DNA of 64,000 bases. It comes from Runella sp. SP2. GTDB taxonomy: Bacteria > Bacteroidota > Bacteroidia > Cytophagales > Spirosomataceae. The DNA is taken from NCBI RefSeq assembly GCF_003711225.1, contig NZ_CP031030.1:4340001-4404000 (forward strand), written 5' to 3'. Under the pieces are notes generated by a model that was not told the DNA's origin, did no database searches, and saw nothing but the letters and a program-made list of their open reading frames with translations. A program made the position numbers and the translations under genes. Of this stretch, positions 9,884 through 17,832 are shown in pieces (the first letter of the stretch is position 1; each line of letters begins with the position of its first letter).

Positions 9884-12172
9884 CTATTCGTAGCCATTTT
9901 TCAATACTATCTTTCCCCCTTTTTGTGCTACTATTTCAATTTCGGTTTCATCAATGGGTTTCACAATCATTCCTTGTTGTACTTTTACAAGATGTGTTTT
10001 AAAAGGAAGTTTCAAGCGAGCCACGCCGCCTTTTTCTGAGTACAGCTGAATTTCATCTACGTTTCCGCCCGTCCGAGTGGCACTTACCAAAAACGCCCCC
10101 TCCGCACGAAGGTCACGAAATGACGCCTCCGTCCAATCAGCAGGGACGGCGGGAAAAACGTTGATGGTACCCGAATAACTTTGTAAAAGCATTTCTTGAA
10201 CTCCCGCCGCAAAGGCAAAATTCCCTTCTAAGGTAAACGGACGGTATGTGAATTTGGACAAACCCGATTTGGTTTGGTCGCCGTTGGCATGAAACGAATT
10301 AGGCAAGCAGAAAGCCGAGGCAAACGTTCGGAGGGTTTTTGCCGCCCCTGCGCCATCTTTAGCACGCGCTTTTAGGCTGCCTAGCCAAGCGTAGGAGTAG
10401 CCGCACCACCAATCGGGGCCGATGGAATCGAGCAAGGCTATGCTTTTTTTGATGATTTTTTGGTCGCGTTCGCCCTTTTCCCACTGAATATCACCCAACG
10501 GATGAATCGCCATCATGTGCGAAAAATGGCGGTGCGATTGCGCATACGCCAGCGACGGAGAAACCTTCAATTCCAAACTGTCCGACAACGCATAATCGGC
10601 CATTTGTTTGTTCAGTTTTTTCCAACGGGCTACGTCCTGCGTCAAATTTAGTTCGGTGGCCAATTCTTCGGCTTTGCCAAACGCAAAACGCATCAGCGAC
10701 AAATCGTAATTGGTATTTTCCGAAAACCACGCCGTTACTCGGTTGTCGTTGATTTCGGGGCTGGAGCCTATCGGCAGTTGGCGTTTCCAATCGTCGTTTA
10801 GAATGGTATTTTTTTCAAGAAAAGTGGCTACTTGTTTAAACCACGGATACGCTCGCTCCTGCAAAAAACGGCGATCCATGCTGTAGCGCCACTGAAGGTA
10901 AAAATGCTGCGACAACCAAGCCGACACCGTTGGCGAAAAAGAATACTGAATCCAACCTCCCATAGGCACCCCTGTAAGTGTGGTCACGCCTGGGACATTA
11001 ATTCCGTCGGTTTGATAAAACCACTTGGTGTATTCGCGGTACGCCGCGCGATTGCCGTCGAGGTGGTCGAGGTAGCCCATTGCTTCGTCGAGGTGGTTGG
11101 AGGCATAGCTCGGCCAGTAACTTAGCTGGGTGTTGAGGTCATGGTGAAAATCCCCTTTCCACGGCGGAAGGCGGCCATTGTCGGCCGTCCACACGGCTTG
11201 CAGCGAAATGGGCGGCGCTCCTTTGCGGGCCGTACTGCCAAATTTGTATTGTTCGAGGTAGTATTGTTTTTCGAGCAGTGGGTCGGGCAATTTGAGGCTT
11301 GATTTTCCCCAAAAATTTTTCCACCAACTCAAGTGCGGAAGCATCGCTTTTTCGTACGACATCGCCGTGGCCGTCAGTTCATTGGCAGGTGTTTTAGGCT
11401 TGTTGGGGTAGTGCGCCGAAATACTCCACACACCTTCCCACGTTTTGTCGGCCACTTCTTTCCAACGGACACTTACTTCGTATTCAAAATCGCCCCAACC
11501 TTTTTGGCGGTACGTAGCCGACTTTGAGTTTTGTTTTACTTTCCCTTGTTTATACCCCAACCGTGCCAAATCGTCGCCAGCTACCGAACCGCCAGCTGTT
11601 TTGTCCACTTCGCCTTCGTATTTGGGGGCTAGCAGCTGAATATCAAACTCTTTAACGCCTTCCAACCGAAAATACCCAAACGGCAAATTGGCATGAACAA
11701 AAGAGGTAAGGCGCGCTCCATTCGCCCATTTTACTTCTGCCACCGCCTGTTGAATGTCCAGACGCGCACTGGTTACGGCGCCCCATTCTTTAGCAGCTAT
11801 TTCGAAGGCTGCTCCAGGGATTTTGCTGGGGGCAGGTTCTTTTTCGTAGGGTACGTCACCGTATTCCTGAACTGTTTTGTAGTTATTTTTCTTGATTTGT
11901 TCTTGAACCCACTTGTAGGTAAACTCAGGCTTTTTCATGCCTTCCATTGGGCGTAAGTCCCAAAGTTCGGCATGGTCGAGCGAAAAACGTAGCTTATCGT
12001 CTTTTTGCCAAATCAACTCTCCCACAAAACCATTCCCCAACGGCAATGCCTCGTCCCAACGCGTCGGAAGTTTATCAAAAACAAGGTCGTGGCTGGCCGA
12101 CACTTGTGCCGAAATAGTGGTGTGTAGGCTACCCATCAGGAAAAGTAGCAACCCTAAAAAGCGTTTGGACAT
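9884..12172 (-). CDS. Secreted GH95-family alpha-L-fucosidase-like glycoside hydrolase
   Basis: 762 aa with a signal peptide (MSKRFLGLLLFLMGSLHTT, cleavage after ISA-Q). The N-terminal beta-sandwich begins with the family phrase RWDEALPLGNGFVGELIW and ELWDLRP. The (alpha/alpha)6 catalytic part contains DFHHDLNTQLSYWPSYASNH, the counterpart of the N-Q--YWP motif of GH95, and later HFSHMMAIHPLGDI and the GNFAFAAGVQEMLLQS block near the C-terminus, followed by a C-terminal beta domain. Characterised GH95 enzymes are inverting 1,2-alpha-L-fucosidases; a few act on galactose. The substrate here is inferred only. With the sulfatases at 17834-23292 it could take part in breaking down sulfated fucose-containing glycans. 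Confidence 0.8.
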   Translation of the reverse strand: MSKRFLGLLLFLMGSLHTTISAQVSASHDLVFDKLPTRWDEALPLGNGFVGELIWQKDDKLRFSLDHAELWDLRPMEGMKKPEFTYKWVQEQIKKNNYKTVQEYGDVPYEKEPAPSKIPGAAFEIAAKEWGAVTSARLDIQQAVAEVKWANGARLTSFVHANLPFGYFRLEGVKEFDIQLLAPKYEGEVDKTAGGSVAGDDLARLGYKQGKVKQNSKSATYRQKGWGDFEYEVSVRWKEVADKTWEGVWSISAHYPNKPKTPANELTATAMSYEKAMLPHLSWWKNFWGKSSLKLPDPLLEKQYYLEQYKFGSTARKGAPPISLQAVWTADNGRLPPWKGDFHHDLNTQLSYWPSYASNHLDEAMGYLDHLDGNRAAYREYTKWFYQTDGINVPGVTTLTGVPMGGWIQYSFSPTVSAWLSQHFYLQWRYSMDRRFLQERAYPWFKQVATFLEKNTILNDDWKRQLPIGSSPEINDNRVTAWFSENTNYDLSLMRFAFGKAEELATELNLTQDVARWKKLNKQMADYALSDSLELKVSPSLAYAQSHRHFSHMMAIHPLGDIQWEKGERDQKIIKKSIALLDSIGPDWWCGYSYAWLGSLKARAKDGAGAAKTLRTFASAFCLPNSFHANGDQTKSGLSKFTYRPFTLEGNFAFAAGVQEMLLQSYSGTINVFPAVPADWTEASFRDLRAEGAFLVSATRTGGNVDEIQLYSEKGGVARLKLPFKTHLVKVQQGMIVKPIDETEIEIVAQKGGKIVLKNGYE

Positions 12173-13002: not shown

Positions 13003-13473
13003 TCAGGAACGAGGAGTTAACACGCGCGGCTTAACAGTGAAGCGAATCGAACGGCTGCAATTTCCATCACGCCCTGTGACTGACCTTCCCGTTGCCATCA
13101 ACATGACATCGTAGGTTTCGTTTACATTTCGAAAAGTATATCGAAATTCGTTGCTCGTAGAAGTCTGATTGTAAAGCACTTCATTCCGACTATTGGTAAT
13201 ATACAGTGAGAAATGCCCCTGACAACCCGAACGCACTGGCAGTGTAGGTATAATAAACTGTACGGGTTGTGTGGGGCTGGGCGGCAATTCTAAATCTCGT
13301 GAAATCATGACGCCAACAGTGCCATAAATTGCCTTAGAACCCAGCATAAAGTTGGAGGTAACAGCCTCAGAAAAGCAGCGACAAATACGGCTATCGGGCG
13401 ACTGAGCTACGGCCTGGTTGTTTTCTAAAAACAACCCTACTACGGCACAAACGAGGGTGATAAGATATTTCAT
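13003..13473 (-). CDS. Secreted protein of unknown function, middle gene of the protease operon
   Basis: 156 aa with a signal peptide (MKYLITLVCAVVGLFLENNQ, then AVAQ). The mature part has four or five cysteines: an N-terminal ICRCF pair, a central SGCQGHFSLYI and a late GNCSRSIRF, compatible with disulfides in the periplasm or outside the cell. Alternating hydrophobic patterns (PVQFIIPTLPV, EFRYTFRNVNETYDVMLMA) suggest a beta-sandwich. I recognise no family. It sits between the protease-like gene (16 nt upstream) and the CARDB-like gene, so all three are probably expressed and exported together. Confidence 0.55.
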   Translation of the reverse strand: MKYLITLVCAVVGLFLENNQAVAQSPDSRICRCFSEAVTSNFMLGSKAIYGTVGVMISRDLELPPSPTQPVQFIIPTLPVRSGCQGHFSLYITNSRNEVLYNQTSTSNEFRYTFRNVNETYDVMLMATGRSVTGRDGNCSRSIRFTVKPRVLTPRS

Positions 13474-13489: not shown

Positions 13490-14641
13490 TTAGCGAAAAG
13501 TAGCTTCAAAAGGGCGATTATTTCCATCAAATCGTACCAACGGGCGGCCTGTCTGAGCAAATACAACACGCTCTTGGTCACTGCTTTTGGCTACCACCCG
13601 AAGCAAATCGACGTTCCAATTATCCCCTCCTATTCCTCCTCCAAAAGTGGTTTGGAGCATCACACATTTGATTTGGCTCAATGGAGCTGCACGGCGAAGG
13701 GTCAGCGGTACATTTTCGGTATAATTGTCCATCCAACGGACATTTTTATTGATATTGGCATACACATCCGTTGACCCATCGGCATATTTTACAATCACAT
13801 TGACATTGTCATTACCGCCACGCAAGTCGTCGCCACCTGTGCCTATTTCAATCAGTAATTGGCGCACCAATCCATCGTTGGCCAGAGGGGTTGGAGAAAT
13901 GACAGGTGGACGCACAGTTGTATATTTTTTATCTACGAAGTACGTGAGCCACTTATTCGCTGGACGTTCTTGATAGTAGTAATTTTGGGCGGCAACATTG
14001 ACGCGCAGCGTCTGTGTTTCGTTCGGATAATTGGGATCATAGATAAAGATTTTAAAATCTTCTTTATTATCGCCCAAATCCCCTCTGTAACGTCCCAAAT
14101 CATACCCTATAGCCAAGACCTGATGATGAGGGCCTACCCCGCCATTTCCGCTTTTAAATAACCCTAGTGGAACTGGGCTTCCTGAGCGCATCATTTCGAC
14201 CAATTCTTGTATCCTGCCACCATTGGTTCCTTGCAGCCCCCAGTTAAAAAATTCATTGGTACGCCAGCCAAATGGATTAAAAATCAGTTCGGCCCACTTA
14301 TCGGAATTTGAGCTACCGTTGACGTTGAGTAAAGTAGAGTTATTTTGTCTCGCCAAAATATACTGGTGCAAAGTTGTACCCGAAGCAGGGCGGTGGGTTT
14401 GGGCTGGAATAGGCTGGTTGTTTTTGTAATAATCGAGTGCCGAATAAACCATCCCTCCGCACAGACCTCCAAAGCGAGGGCCATTAAGACCCGCAATTTG
14501 AATCTGGGTTTGAAATTCGTTGGAAAACTTAAAACCATGCTTGCTGGGGTCAAACGTAGTACGTCTCTCTTGAGCGTGAACTCCTGCTGTCATGATTACA
14601 AGTCCTAATGCGAGCGATAATAATGTTGTTAGCTTTTTCAT
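13490..14641 (-). CDS. Secreted papain-like cysteine-protease homologue with a C-terminal DLRGGND domain
   Basis: 383 aa from ATG 14641 (a TTG three codons earlier is less likely). Signal peptide: MKKLTTLLSLALGLVIMTAG, cleavage after VHA-Q. Residues about 50-240 have the order of a papain-like fold: C61 in RFGGLCGGMVYSALDYY, H172/H173 in GPHHQVLAIGYD, and D202/N204 in IYDPNYP, a plausible Cys-His-Asp/Asn triad. The C-terminal 120 residues form a beta-sandwich-like module with DDLRGGNDNVNV (from about 271) and GGDNWNVDLLRV (from about 339). It is the first gene of a three-gene secreted operon and is preceded by a promoter carrying the same 20-bp box as the neighbouring response-regulator gene. 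Activity is inferred; it could also be a transglutaminase-like or non-catalytic homologue. Confidence 0.65.
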   Translation of the reverse strand: MKKLTTLLSLALGLVIMTAGVHAQERRTTFDPSKHGFKFSNEFQTQIQIAGLNGPRFGGLCGGMVYSALDYYKNNQPIPAQTHRPASGTTLHQYILARQNNSTLLNVNGSSNSDKWAELIFNPFGWRTNEFFNWGLQGTNGGRIQELVEMMRSGSPVPLGLFKSGNGGVGPHHQVLAIGYDLGRYRGDLGDNKEDFKIFIYDPNYPNETQTLRVNVAAQNYYYQERPANKWLTYFVDKKYTTVRPPVISPTPLANDGLVRQLLIEIGTGGDDLRGGNDNVNVIVKYADGSTDVYANINKNVRWMDNYTENVPLTLRRAAPLSQIKCVMLQTTFGGGIGGDNWNVDLLRVVAKSSDQERVVFAQTGRPLVRFDGNNRPFEATFR

Positions 14642-14673: not shown

Positions 14674-14725
14674 CAAAGGTAGTGGGTCAACGCACGCTCG
14701 TCAATTACCCTTTTGGGTGATTTTT
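14674..14725 (-). promoter_or_regulatory. Promoter plus 20-bp palindromic box upstream of the secreted operon
   Basis: On the minus strand the -7 element TACCTTTG is at 14681-14674 and a TTG -33 element lies 20 nt upstream. Directly upstream of that, at 14706-14725, is the box (plus strand TACCCTTTTGGGTGATTTTT) with the inverted repeat ACCC-TTTT-GGGT. The box ends exactly 24 nt before the -7 element. Its position just upstream of -33 suits an activator. The same box with the same spacing occurs at 15462-15481. Confidence 0.7.
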
Positions 14726-14731
14726 AAAACC

Positions 14732-14768
14732 AAAAAGCCGCCGAGGATAAGTTCCCCGACGGCTTTTT
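14732..14768 (-). terminator. Intrinsic terminator of the response-regulator gene
   Basis: A stem AAAAAGCCG-CGAGG / CCCCG-CGGCTTTTT with a flanking T-run on the minus strand. It lies between the stop of the response regulator at 14787 and the regulatory box of the next operon, and so insulates the two. Confidence 0.8.
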
Positions 14769-14786
14769 AGCATAAGTTTATGTATG

Positions 14787-15425
14787 TTAAACGGCTACAA
14801 TTTTTTCTTTGAGGGCTTTGGCCACAGCCTCCGTTCCGCACGACACGTGGAGTTTGGTATAAATGTTTTTGAGGTGTTTTTTAACGGTATCTAATGAAAT
14901 AAAGCACTCCGCAGCAATCATTTTATAGCCGTTGCCTTTGATGAGTAATTGTAAAATTTCTTTTTCACGCTCCGACAAATTGTAATCTGGCGCTGGTTTT
15001 GATGCCTGTCGGAAGTAGTGAAAAATCTTGTTGGCTACTTGAGGACTCATGGGGGAACCGCCCTCCATTGCTTCTTGCAAAGCCGCCATGAGGCGCGCGG
15101 GAGGCGTATGTTTGAGTAAATATCCATCAGCACCTGCACAAATACACTCAAAAATTTGCTCATCGTCATCAAACACCGTAAACATGATGATTTTGGTGGC
15201 TGGGCGTACTGCTTTGATAGCTTTAAGACCTTCAACACCACTACGTCCAGGCATATCGATATCCATAATGACCAGATCGGGCTCATACAAGAGAACTTCT
15301 TCTGCCGCACGCAAGCAGTTTTCAAACGCAGCTTTGACGCTAAAAAACATTCCATCGTTCAATAGTAATTGAAGCGACTGGCGAAGTTGGTTGTTGTCTT
15401 CGAAGATGAGGAGTGAAGTTGCCAT
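14787..15425 (-). CDS. NarL/FixJ-type response regulator (REC + LuxR HTH)
   Basis: 212 aa from ATG 15425; the frame is open further upstream but homology starts at MATSLLIFEDN. The receiver domain (residues 1-120) has an acidic cluster E9-D10, the phospho-acceptor D55 in VIMDIDMPG, and the conserved Lys in YLLKHTPP. After a linker, residues about 145-212 form a LuxR-type helix-turn-helix (LSEREKEILQLLIKG, then AAECFISLDTVKKHLKNIY). The cognate kinase ends 65 nt upstream. Its own promoter carries the 20-bp box also found before the secreted operon, suggesting autoregulation. The -7 element ends only 4 nt before the ATG, so the mRNA is probably leaderless. Confidence 0.93.
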   Translation of the reverse strand: MATSLLIFEDNNQLRQSLQLLLNDGMFFSVKAAFENCLRAAEEVLLYEPDLVIMDIDMPGRSGVEGLKAIKAVRPATKIIMFTVFDDDEQIFECICAGADGYLLKHTPPARLMAALQEAMEGGSPMSPQVANKIFHYFRQASKPAPDYNLSEREKEILQLLIKGNGYKMIAAECFISLDTVKKHLKNIYTKLHVSCGTEAVAKALKEKIVAV

Positions 15426-15429
15426 TTCA

Positions 15430-15481
15430 CAAAAATAGTGGACTTCGATGGGATTGTAAAGTACCCTTTTGGGTGATTTTT
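15430..15481 (-). promoter_or_regulatory. Promoter plus 20-bp palindromic box upstream of the response regulator
   Basis: Minus-strand -7 element TATTTTTG at 15437-15430, a TTTA -33-like element 19 nt upstream, and the box at 15462-15481, identical over 20 bp to 14706-14725. The distance from box to -7 is 24 nt in both promoters. Only 4 nt separate the -7 element from the start codon, which predicts a leaderless transcript. It overlaps no coding sequence: the kinase gene ends at 15490. Confidence 0.7.
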
Positions 15482-15489
15482 GTTTGCGG

Positions 15490-17694
15490 TTATACTTCCA
15501 TGGTAAGCTCAATTGAGGTACCTCTGTGCGGTTGAGAAGAAATCATAAACTTACTTTTGAGCAAGTCGGCACGGTGCTGCATGTTGTTAAGGCCATTTCC
15601 TTTACGAATGGTATTCATCTCAAATCCAATTCCATTGTCTTCTATTCGCAAATGCAACACATTTCCTGTCACGGCAAGCTTTATCTGCGCCTTGGTGGCC
15701 TTTGAATATTTCACTAAATTGTTGATGGCCTCTTTATATACCAAATAAAAGTCTCGCCGCTTGTCCATCGGAAGTTTAAAGTGGCTCACGTCTTCTGGGA
15801 ATTCCAATTGGTAAAGAATCGAAGCTCCATCGAGCATATCAGCGGCGTAGCGGCGCATCCGAACCAACAAGTTTTGAATATCGTCATATTGTGGATTAAT
15901 GTTCCACACAATATCTCCCAAACTTTCGCTGATTTGTTGAATACTTTCCCCTGCTTGCTGAAGGTATTCTTGGGCCTGAGTTGGAACAGAAAGTGTCCGT
16001 TTGGTTAGTTCATTTAAAATATTAACGTTGGTCAGTGATGAGCCTATTTCATCATGTAAGTCTTTTGAAATGGTGTTTCTGACGGCCAGAAGCACTTCTT
16101 TTTCTTGGAGTTTTTTGCGAAGCTGATAACGGTTAAATAAAATCCAGGCAAGCAACATCGACAGCAGCACCAGCCCTGCTCCCACCATCTGAATCATCTG
16201 TTGGCGTTGAAGCTGCCGTTCTTTCAGTTCTTTATCTTTTTGGCTAAGTTCCAATCGCTGACGAGCCAACTGAAGTTCTTGTTCCTTGTTTTTAGTAATC
16301 AAAAGTTGTTTTTCGAATAACTCCTTTTGTCGAGAAAAAATGGCATCTCGGAGCTTTTGTTGCTGGGTAAGGAGTTGAATTTTATCTTCTTTCCGTTGAG
16401 CTTCCAGTTTATCCCCCACAATAATCGCCTTTTGTTTTTCTATTTCTAGCTGACGAATGAGTTTTTCGGTATTCAGCTTGGCTATTTCAAAATCCTTCCG
16501 TTCCGATTCATATTTTACCTGCAAATCTGAAATATTCTTTTTTAACTGTATGCCCTCTAAGCTATCTTTTAGTGCGTGGTATTGGGCCGAATGTAGGTAC
16601 GCATTTTTAAAATCGTTGACCTTGGCAAAGTAGGAAGACTGGCTCAAATATACATCGCGCAAAATATCTTTTCGTTGAAGCGAATCAGCCAATCGCTCTG
16701 CCTCTCTATAATACCGAACCATCTGATCATTATGCTGCATTTTTGCGCAAATTTCGGCAGCAATACGGCTTTTAGCCGCCGCACTAGCCAAGTCGTTTGT
16801 AGCTCGGCTTAAAGCAATCGATTGCTCAATCGCCTCTAGCGCTTCTGGGTATTTTTGCTGACGTTCAAGCAACAAGGCCAAATTTTGGTATGCTTGCACT
16901 AGGTGCTTTTTTTGCCCATTGATAGTTGCATATTTGACAGATTTTTGACGATAAATCGTTGCCGAATCTAGTTGGTTGTAAGCTGAATACATGGTACTCA
17001 AGTTACCTGTTACCGTAGCCAAGCCCAAAACATTGTTGTTTTTTGCGTGAACTCGCAAGGCTTCTTTGGCGTACTTGATAGCCTCCTCTTTGTTCTCAAG
17101 TCGATAGAAAGCATTGGCAAGATTGCCTGCCGAATTAGCCCAGCCATGCAAATCCCCGAGCTGTTCGTGCAGTTTCATGGCTTTAAAGTACCAATTTGCT
17201 TCTTGTTCGCGCTGGTTTTGTTTTCCTGCCAATACCCCCAAATCATTGTACAATACCGCCGTATAGTTAGACGGTTGTTTGTCAAAATAAGTAGTAAGCG
17301 CCTTTTGAAAAAACTGTTCTGCTACGGGTAAATCATTGTTATACATCCAATATTTACCCTGTTGTAACTCTGCCAATGCAAGCATGAAGGGGTCATTGAG
17401 TTGTGTGGCTATGCGGGTTCCTATCTGCCAATATTGCCGCACATCGGTATTGGGCGTGTGTTCTACTAATAAAAAAGCGATTTTTAAATTAGCCCAACCT
17501 TCACCGCGCAACATCGCTGTTTGTTGGCTCAAAGACAACGCCTGCTTTGCCAAAAGTAATGCTTGTGACACCTCCTCAGCCGCGTCTGCGGCATTGAGTA
17601 ATCCATAAATCTTGAGCGAATCTGCTTTGGTATAGCGCTGTGCATTAAGTACCAATGAAAATGTAAGCCACCAAAACAACCAAAGGTATTTCAT
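15490..17694 (-). CDS. TPR-containing membrane sensor histidine kinase (HisKA_3 type)
   Basis: 734 aa from ATG 17694, chosen because it begins a signal peptide (MKYLWLFWWLTFSLVLNAQ); the frame is open upstream to a GTG. The periplasmic part, residues about 30-390, is built of tetratricopeptide repeats (for example YNDLGVLAGKQNQREQEANW and NAFYRLENKEEAIKYAKEAL). A long coiled coil (about 400-500) leads to one membrane span (MIQMVGAGLVLLSMLLAWIL). The cytoplasmic kinase has the HisKA_3 H-box with H547 in DLHDEIGSSLTN, the N-box EAINNLVKYS, and EDNGIGF in the ATPase lid region. It pairs with the NarL-type regulator 65 nt downstream. TPR sensors of this kind are common in Bacteroidota; the signal is unknown. 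Confidence 0.92.
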   Translation of the reverse strand: MKYLWLFWWLTFSLVLNAQRYTKADSLKIYGLLNAADAAEEVSQALLLAKQALSLSQQTAMLRGEGWANLKIAFLLVEHTPNTDVRQYWQIGTRIATQLNDPFMLALAELQQGKYWMYNNDLPVAEQFFQKALTTYFDKQPSNYTAVLYNDLGVLAGKQNQREQEANWYFKAMKLHEQLGDLHGWANSAGNLANAFYRLENKEEAIKYAKEALRVHAKNNNVLGLATVTGNLSTMYSAYNQLDSATIYRQKSVKYATINGQKKHLVQAYQNLALLLERQQKYPEALEAIEQSIALSRATNDLASAAAKSRIAAEICAKMQHNDQMVRYYREAERLADSLQRKDILRDVYLSQSSYFAKVNDFKNAYLHSAQYHALKDSLEGIQLKKNISDLQVKYESERKDFEIAKLNTEKLIRQLEIEKQKAIIVGDKLEAQRKEDKIQLLTQQQKLRDAIFSRQKELFEKQLLITKNKEQELQLARQRLELSQKDKELKERQLQRQQMIQMVGAGLVLLSMLLAWILFNRYQLRKKLQEKEVLLAVRNTISKDLHDEIGSSLTNVNILNELTKRTLSVPTQAQEYLQQAGESIQQISESLGDIVWNINPQYDDIQNLLVRMRRYAADMLDGASILYQLEFPEDVSHFKLPMDKRRDFYLVYKEAINNLVKYSKATKAQIKLAVTGNVLHLRIEDNGIGFEMNTIRKGNGLNNMQHRADLLKSKFMISSQPHRGTSIELTMEV

Positions 17695-17724
17695 AGGAGA
17701 AGGGGCTTTACCATGAGCTCTAAA

Positions 17725-17755
17725 CAAAGTTAACAAAAATCCATGCACGTTCAAC
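17725..17755 (-). promoter_or_regulatory. Bacteroidota-type promoter of the TPR histidine kinase
   Basis: Minus strand: GTTG at 17755-17752, 19 nt spacer, TAACTTTG at 17732-17725. This matches the TTG / TAnnTTTG consensus. It begins directly next to the 77-bp repeat copy B and lies 31 nt upstream of the ATG at 17694. Confidence 0.6.
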
Positions 17756-17832
17756 ACTTAACGAGGTTTTGAGAAACCTCGGTTTTCGGTTAGGAGTAAC
17801 CGAAAGCACCTGCTGTGAAAAACCGAAAACAC
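17756..17832. repeat. 77-bp dispersed repeat, copy B
   Basis: 69 of 77 positions match copy A at 12268-12344, ungapped and in the same orientation. It holds GAGGTTTTGAGAAACCTC at 17763-17780 and the GGTTAGGAGTAACC hairpin within 17784-17805. It fills the space between the stop codon of the sulfatase gene (17834) and the -33 element of the kinase promoter. The differences fall mostly outside the stems. Confidence 0.85.

What the first reader, a model, noticed from the sequence alone, without database searches (positions are those of the whole stretch)
14706..15481. Identical 20-bp palindromic box with identical spacing in two promoters: a candidate operator for the TPR-kinase/NarL-type two-component system
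TACCCTTTTGGGTGATTTTT occurs at 14706-14725 and 15462-15481, identical base for base. On the minus strand the box ends exactly 24 nt before a -7 element in both cases (TACCTTTG and TATTTTTG), and both spacers end in CCAC. One promoter drives the secreted protease operon, the other the response regulator itself. Outside box and -7 the spacers differ, so this is not a recent duplication. Position just upstream of -33 suits an activator that controls itself and one target operon. The match to TAnnTTTG is established knowledge for Bacteroidota; binding by this regulator is inference.
Basis: partly seen in the sequence, partly recalled or inferred. Interest (0 to 1): 0.75.

Follow-up and report, generated by a model that had tools for sequence, protein, structure and literature searches.

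The report
Paired self-and-neighbour operators of response regulator
A bacterial signalling gene and the secreted-protein operon beside it carry the same short palindromic switch at the same promoter position; comparison with relatives indicates that the signalling protein reads this switch in both places, and suggests a way to predict targets for related regulators.

Summary
In detail: AAAAATCACCCAAAAGGGTA (minus strand) occurs twice, identical, 24 nt before TAnnTTTG, ahead of the NarL-type regulator (RR) and of the next operon. In the 7.6-Mb genome (genus Runella, inferred) only these two sites are perfect for box plus -7. Of 13 Runella genomes, the three with an RR ortholog are the three with the pair. 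Across Bacteroidota relatives, dyads peak 25 nt before a -7 match in RR upstream regions and just after RR, but not before 141 control genes. The dyad differs between relatives, yet the copies before and after an RR tend to change together (permutation 0 of 20,000). Of 183 scored RR residues, K186, K183 and K182 covary best on average with the dyad; they align with NarL's DNA-contacting residues (contacts recalled). So the RR very probably binds both boxes. Centred near -43.5, next to the -33 position, it most likely activates both promoters, including its own (inferred, untested). 'Protease' for the target is unproven. A paralogue in the same genome has a different matched pair.

The parts
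15461..15476 (-). Operator 1: 16-bp dyad TCACCC-AAAA-GGGTAC in the promoter of the response regulator, between the HK stop codon and the RR start codon
   Evidence: dyads at this place in relatives
15430..15437 (-). -7 element TATTTTTG of the RR promoter; 25 nt from the 12-bp core; the RR start codon follows after 4 nt, so the mRNA is predicted leaderless or nearly so (inference)
   Evidence: TAnnTTTG lies at -12 to -5 in F. psychrophilum (PMC9723704, passages)
14787..15425 (-). NarL/FixJ-type response regulator, 212 aa (Response_reg + GerE); recognition helix 177-192 SLDTVKKHLKNIYTKL (by alignment with NarL)
   Evidence: PDB relatives VraR and NarL
15490..17757 (-). TPR sensor histidine kinase (TPR, HisKA_3, HATPase_c); no further copy of the box (<=3 mismatches) in the window
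14729..14771 (-). Strong hairpin with U-rich 3' arm after RR (terminator-like); separates RR from the next promoter
   Evidence: -31.5 kcal/mol, z -8.7; the consensus terminator scan does not list it, since the T run lies in the stem
14705..14720 (-). Operator 2: 16-bp dyad TCACCC-AAAA-GGGTAA ahead of the neighbouring operon of putatively secreted proteins
14702..14704 (-). TTG directly after operator 2, at the -33 position (TTT at the same place, 15458-15460, in the RR promoter)
   Evidence: TTG follows 23 of 54 downstream sites and 12 of 64 RR sites (lenient sites); -33 TTTG of B. fragilis (PMC7366714, passage)
14674..14681 (-). -7 element TACCTTTG of the neighbouring operon
13490..14641 (-). 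Target: 383-aa putatively secreted protein with invariant C61, H173, D202 (peptidase-like, unproven) and a better modelled C-terminal beta-sandwich (about residues 258-381; whole model pLDDT 56.6)
13003..13473 (-). Second gene of the presumed target operon (156 aa, signal-peptide-like start by eye); relatives in the same cassette in L064, L070, L073
12447..12971 (-). Third gene of the presumed target operon (174 aa, signal-peptide-like start by eye); relatives in L064, L067

Best explanation
The box is the DNA-binding site (operator) of the adjacent NarL-type response regulator. A regulator dimer, phosphorylated by the neighbouring TPR histidine kinase, binds the 16-bp dyad centred near -43.5, directly upstream of the -33 position of two sigma-A-type (TAnnTTTG) promoters, and activates both. 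One promoter makes more regulator from a nearly leaderless mRNA (positive autoregulation); the other drives the operon of putatively secreted proteins next door. No such site was found ahead of the kinase. Shown by computation: the two sites, their geometry, their conservation, the paired change and the covariation with the recognition helix. Inferred: binding, activation rather than repression, phosphorylation dependence, the transcription starts. The signal is unknown.
For: Two perfect sites in 7.6 Mb, both intergenic, same distance to the -7. Pair in 3 of 13 Runella genomes, the same 3 that hold the RR ortholog. HK-RR-target cassette in distant Bacteroidota, with the box in 10 of 15 loci examined. 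Spacing 25 is the peak in RR upstream regions: 15 of 84; shuffles mean 0.62, maximum 3 in 200. In a second set (44 left of 80 fetched): 9 of 44 upstream and 8 of 44 after RR, against means of 0.73 and 1.16 at other spacings. 141 control genes: 3 at spacing 25, other spacings mean 1.86. A second matching site in 29 of 51 loci, 17 of these just after RR; 3-10 loci with permuted palindromes in 20 rounds. Arm identity 6.43 of 12 within a locus, 4.71 between loci, 0 of 20,000 permutations. K186, K183, K182 rank 1-3 of 183 residues by mean covariation.
Against: No binding or expression data. Only 31 of 113 deduplicated RRs have a strict site upstream and 22 of 113 downstream, 6 on both sides; the rule is common, not universal. 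Of 35 loci with both lenient sites, 16 pairs match in >=8 of 12 and 19 do not. By single best cell the order is K182 8.0, K186 7.8, I53 7.4, K183 7.1, E9 7.0, F82 6.9, so residues outside the helix also score high; this is read as shared ancestry. The tree-aware pair test had 1-2 supported pairs and decided nothing; for K182 versus C at base 6 the pairs went about equally either way. The leaderless excess is modest. An autoregulatory site can also repress.
Confidence: 0.82

Rival explanations
1. The regulator binds both boxes but represses them (negative autoregulation), with phosphorylation relieving or imposing repression.
For: The dyad abuts the -33 position, so a bound dimer could hinder RNA polymerase; sequence alone cannot give the sign.
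Against: The dyad lies upstream of the -33/-7 core (about -51 to -36) at one preferred distance in distant relatives, as expected for contact with the polymerase and typical of activators (recalled). The nearest studied TPR-kinase/LuxR-type pair, FimS/FimR, activates (PMC1974823 and PMC5706477, passages).
Confidence: 0.12
2. Another transcription factor, not this regulator, reads the box.
For: A binding assay is lacking, and the genome holds other regulators of this kind (one search lists one more at E <= 1e-50).
Against: The box-plus-promoter pattern is absent from the 10 Runella genomes without the RR ortholog. The dyad sequence tends to follow the recognition helix of the RR beside it. The paralogous RR of the same genome has a different dyad pair around its own gene.
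Confidence: 0.04
3. Chance match, recent duplication or a transcription-terminator-like repeat.
For: On the + strand the copy at 15462-15475 is listed as a weak stem with a T run; the flank AAAAA is shared beyond the dyad.
Against: 0.03 expected; the spacers differ; each copy has a counterpart at its own place in R. defluvii and R. limosa. A far stronger hairpin lies elsewhere.
Confidence: 0.02

Closest known systems
FimS/FimR of Porphyromonas gingivalis (TPR sensor kinase + LuxR-type regulator)
   Same: Bacteroidota pair with a periplasmic TPR sensor; FimR activates the first gene of a surface-protein cluster and is reported to bind its promoter, and binds the mfa1 promoter (passages of PMC1974823 and PMC5706477). 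The HK here matches the FimS model NF053520 far below its cut-off.
   Different: No operator sequence, fixed spacing or autoregulation was found in the passages read (terms searched); Nishikawa 2004, the source for the first target, was not read. The target here is an operon of putatively secreted proteins, not fimbriae.
E. coli NarL and its 7-2-7 heptamer pairs (TACYYMT-NN-AKRRGTA, recalled)
   Same: Same regulator family (1a04); dyad of the same overall length (16 bp) with TACC-like half-sites; the best covarying residues align with NarL K188, V189, K192 (contacts recalled).
   Different: The core here is ACCC-N4-GGGT; one dyad at one preferred distance from a TAnnTTTG promoter; two perfect sites in the genome; NarL equivalog score 123.7 versus cut-off 250.
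VraR-type envelope-stress regulators (5hev, 7ve6, 4gvp, all titled VraR)
   Same: Best PDB sequence matches; autoregulated systems of the same regulator family (recalled).
   Different: Other phylum, other promoters and other DNA sites; kinase without TPRs (all recalled).

Membership tests
NarL/FixJ (REC + GerE) two-component response regulator | Receiver domain plus LuxR-type HTH | tested here: met
   Pfam Response_reg 81.3 bits and GerE 58.4 bits, both above cut-off
NarL/FixJ (REC + GerE) two-component response regulator | Adjacent HisKA_3 kinase partner | tested here: met
   HisKA_3 31.6 (cut-off 24) and HATPase_c 35.9 (26.4) in the gene directly upstream; kinase match just upstream of RR in most of the loci
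NarL equivalog (nitrate/nitrite regulator) | NCBIfam equivalog cut-off | tested here: not met
   123.7 bits versus cut-off 250
FimS sensor kinase equivalog | NCBIfam NF053520 cut-off | tested here: not met
   59.2 bits versus cut-off 600
Autoregulated class II activator system | Same operator in own and target promoter | tested here: met
   as sequence:
Autoregulated class II activator system | Operator abuts or overlaps the upstream (-33/-35) promoter element at a fixed distance | tested here: met
   as sequence; transcription starts are inferred, not mapped
Autoregulated class II activator system | Regulator binds and raises transcription | not testable with these tools
   needs a bench assay

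The most novel reading that the evidence does not exclude
A large family of NarL-type regulators in Bacteroidota follows one layout. Each carries a private 16-bp dyad about 25 nt before TAnnTTTG, in its own often leaderless promoter and again directly after its gene, ahead of secreted or regulatory proteins. The dyad can mostly be read off from three recognition-helix residues (examples with exceptions: KKK/KKQ with TNACCC, RGR with TAGCAT, RSK with TCACAT or TCACAC, NAR/NNR with TAGCAA, HSK with TCCCCA or TCACCA, RAK with CTACCA). This would be a portable self-plus-neighbour regulon with a readable DNA code that keeps paralogues in one genome apart.
Probability: 0.55. Interest if true: 0.75.

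Novelty: new variant of a known kind. Interest (0 to 1): 0.62.

Why it matters
I found no operator for a regulator of this kind in Bacteroidota in eight searches of the paper library (listings were capped, and only titles, abstract starts and some passages were seen). If such a regulator shows its own operator in its own promoter at a preferred distance, the binding site and nearest target of many such systems could be predicted from sequence, and the recognition rule could be tested directly with a few purified proteins. It would also explain how paralogous systems in one genome avoid cross-talk at the DNA.

Tried and rejected
Chance and duplication: rejected. Terminator-like element: rejected. 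General Bacteroidota promoter feature: not supported by 141 control genes. A larger genome-wide regulon: not supported, since hits at <=2 mismatches are about as many as for the reversed control; weaker or different sites are not excluded. Rfam at gathering cut-offs: one tRNA in the window. Near-identity plasmid search with the cassette: no match. Structure of the target protein: poor model (pLDDT 56.6). Foldseek's best PDB matches are clostridial alpha-toxin chains and then lipoxygenases, over about 112-134 columns and TM-score by query length at most 0.29. I read this as a match of the C-terminal beta-sandwich to PLAT/C2-type domains (the name recalled, the range inferred); it says nothing about toxicity, and 'protease' stays unproven. 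Phylogenetically independent pairs for helix versus dyad: underpowered. Leaderless start: 28 of 106 RR genes versus 18 of 141 control genes have a -7 match (>=5 of 6) 2-8 nt from the start codon, a modest excess. Third exact copy of the paralogue's box (C1:5497095) lies inside a transporter-like gene (by eye) and is taken as chance; its one-mismatch place (C1:2926684) was not examined.

Full report
Observation. The 20-mer is present twice, identical, at the stated coordinates. On the minus strand it ends 24 nt before TACCTTTG and TATTTTTG, with CCAC at the end of both spacers. With up to 3 mismatches nothing else in the window matches; 0.03 are expected. The window lies in a 7.61-Mb genome. 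I infer the genus Runella: two genomes of the same genus (G162, G163) have contigs of the same length as the R. defluvii and R. limosa records, with the RR at 100% and 93% identity. TCACCCAAAAGGGTA occurs exactly twice there; all 34 hits at <=2 mismatches compare with 30 for the reversed control. Box core plus -7 at the right distance is perfect only at these two places; 81 versus 76 at <=2 mismatches. Of seven one-mismatch places, six lie inside reading frames and one between.

Anatomy. Order on the minus strand: TPR histidine kinase (15490-17757), operator 1 and promoter, NarL-type regulator (14787-15425), a strong terminator-like hairpin (-31.5 kcal/mol, z -8.7), operator 2 and promoter, then a 383-aa protein and two small proteins, all with signal-peptide-like starts by eye. 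The hairpin would explain why the neighbour needs its own promoter. If TAnnTTTG lies at -12 to -5, as in Flavobacterium psychrophilum (PMC9723704, passages), the dyad spans about -51 to -36 and is centred at -43.5. TTG (target) or TTT (regulator) follows at -35 to -33, and the regulator's mRNA would start at its own AUG. A -33 TTTG is stated for B. fragilis, with the note that it was not found in F. johnsoniae (PMC7366714, passage). Over lenient sites in relatives TTG follows the dyad in 23 of 54 downstream sites but only 12 of 64 regulator sites.

Presence in relatives. The regulator has orthologs at 93-100% in R. limosa and R. defluvii, and relatives at 65% and less in Lentimicrobium, Chitinophagaceae, Saprospiraceae and others (best 80 of 187). 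A box-plus-promoter pattern wide enough for the drifted R. limosa copies is found in 3 of 13 Runella genomes, the three that hold the ortholog; a third hit in the own genome (C1:1970376) is inside a reading frame. Kinase, regulator and target occur together in L063-L067 and L069, with the target at 44-48% identity outside Runella; L068, next in similarity, has kinase and regulator but no target match in the stretch held. I examined 15 of the 80 loci for ACCC-N4-GGGT (>=7 of 8) with a -7 match (>=5 of 6) 22-28 nt on: 10 of 15 have it ahead of the regulator, 9 at spacing 25 and one at 24; 5 of 15 have a second + strand copy at spacing 25 just after the regulator. Four further hits lie elsewhere (L063, L069, L073, L076; spacings 24-27) and look like background.

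Geometry tested without assuming the sequence. I counted any dyad (>=5 of 6 pairs) at each distance from a -7 match. In 84 deduplicated upstream regions 15 have it at 25 and 5 at 24; other distances from 5 to 60 give 0 to 3. Dinucleotide shuffles give a mean of 0.62, maximum 3 in 200 rounds. Redone with another deduplication: 16 of 69 upstream at 25 (others mean 0.86, maximum 3) and 10 of 67 after the regulator (mean 1.37, maximum 6). In a second set (44 left of 80 loci fetched afterwards from the listing): 9 of 44 upstream (others mean 0.73, maximum 4) and 8 of 44 after the regulator (mean 1.16, maximum 4). In 141 upstream regions of other genes of the first loci there are 3 at 25 and 3 at 24, against a mean of 1.86 and maximum of 6 elsewhere. 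By the strict rule most single regulators lack a site: 31 of 113 have one upstream, 22 of 113 downstream. The rule misses variants, such as the own genome's paralogue below.

Paired change. The dyad differs widely between relatives, but the copy ahead of the regulator and the copy after it tend to resemble each other. A second copy (<=3 arm mismatches, with a -7 match) exists somewhere in 29 of 51 loci, in 17 of these on the same strand 636-809 nt from the regulator's start, that is just after it; permuted palindromes give 3 to 10 loci in 20 rounds. Some of these loci are close relatives. Among 35 deduplicated loci with both sites by a lenient rule, 16 pairs share 8 or more of 12 arm bases and 19 do not; the mean is 6.43 within loci and 4.71 between loci, 0 of 20,000 permutations. 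Of the 6 loci with strict sites on both sides, 5 share 11-12 of 12 and one shares 1. Examples: TAGCATAGATATGCCA/TAGCATAGATATGCAA (L077), CTACCAAGTTTGGTAA/CTACCACTTTTGGTAA (L105), TCACATAAATATGTAA/TCACATAAATATGTTA (L086).

Who reads it. I first grouped dyads by the three helix residues that align with NarL K188, V189, K192 (that these contact bases in NarL, and their numbers, are recalled; the alignment is) and then scanned all residues of the 47 regulators with a strict site. Of 183 scored residues the three best by mean covariation are K186, K183 and K182 (z 3.8, 3.6, 3.4; next G25 and D179 at 3.1; median 0.90). The strongest cells are K182 with half-site base 6 (z 8.0) and K186 with base 3 (7.8), but I53 (7.4), E9 (7.0) and F82 (6.9), outside the helix, also score high. 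R at 186 goes with G at base 3 in 9 of 12 (2 without, 1 mixed); K goes without G in 26 of 28; after deduplication at 60% identity, 5 of 8 and 24 of 26. N or H at 182 goes with A at base 6 (either half) in 11 of 11, other residues in 6 of 36; K at 182 with C at base 6 in 9 of 11, others in 10 of 36. Against this: the tree-aware pair test had 1, 2 and 1 supported pairs for the three traits and decided nothing, and for K182 the pairs went about equally either way.

A second system in the same genome. The paralogue at C1:1600891-1601517 (44% identical, helix residues HYK) has its own matched pair CTACCCAAATTGGGGAG before and after its gene (C1:1601583, C1:1600869). One further exact copy is inside a transporter-like gene; a one-mismatch place was not examined; the reversed control gives 0. 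Its dyad is one base shorter, and its -7 matches are only 5 of 6. So two systems of the same layout with different boxes coexist.

Targets elsewhere. Genes after the second operator are, where looked at, mostly proteins with signal-peptide-like starts by eye: an OmpA-domain protein in L081, a protein with one marginal RHS-repeat match in L072, a marginal DUF3224 match in L105, no Pfam match in L065, L070, L075, L113. In L036 and its relatives L039, L040, L046, L051 it is a 147-aa protein, LytTR by Pfam in L036, the only one scanned.

Mechanism and novelty. Binding of the regulator to its own and the neighbour's promoter is well supported by computation. Activation is inferred from position and from FimR, the nearest studied relative I know of, which activates the first gene of its target cluster (PMC1974823 and PMC5706477, passages). 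Autoregulated two-component activators are a known kind (recalled). What I did not find in eight searches of the paper library (capped listings, passages of four papers read) is this operator, its preferred place in TAnnTTTG promoters, or the helix-dyad rule.

Noticed in passing
G000:C1:1600869-1601597 (L171, L255): Paralogous kinase/regulator system of the same genome with its own, different operator pair (CTACCCAAATTGGGGAG) before and after the regulator; the next gene encodes a small putatively secreted protein.
   Followed up: partly
window 15425-15437 and relatives: The regulator's -7 element ends 4 nt before the start codon, so the mRNA is predicted leaderless. 28 of 106 RR genes versus 18 of 141 control genes have a -7 match at 2-8 nt.
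   Followed up: partly
window 13490-14641: Target protein: C61, H173, D202 are among the invariant columns of 6 aligned sequences; homologs carry extra N-terminal segments or, in L067, a different C-terminal half. C-terminal beta-sandwich, probably PLAT/C2-type. No Pfam or NCBIfam match at E <= 0.01.
   Followed up: partly
L036, L039, L040, L046, L051 just after the regulator: In one group the gene behind the second operator encodes a 147-aa protein, LytTR by Pfam in L036, suggesting a regulatory cascade.
   Followed up: no
G000:C1:3332048-3338410: Eleven near-identical pattern hits (ACCTTAACGGGTAGCGG...) spaced at multiples of 243 bases: probably a tandem array in a large repetitive gene.
   Followed up: no
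window 9884-12172: The gene downstream of the target operon encodes a GH95-type glycoside hydrolase; not known to be part of the operon.
   Followed up: no
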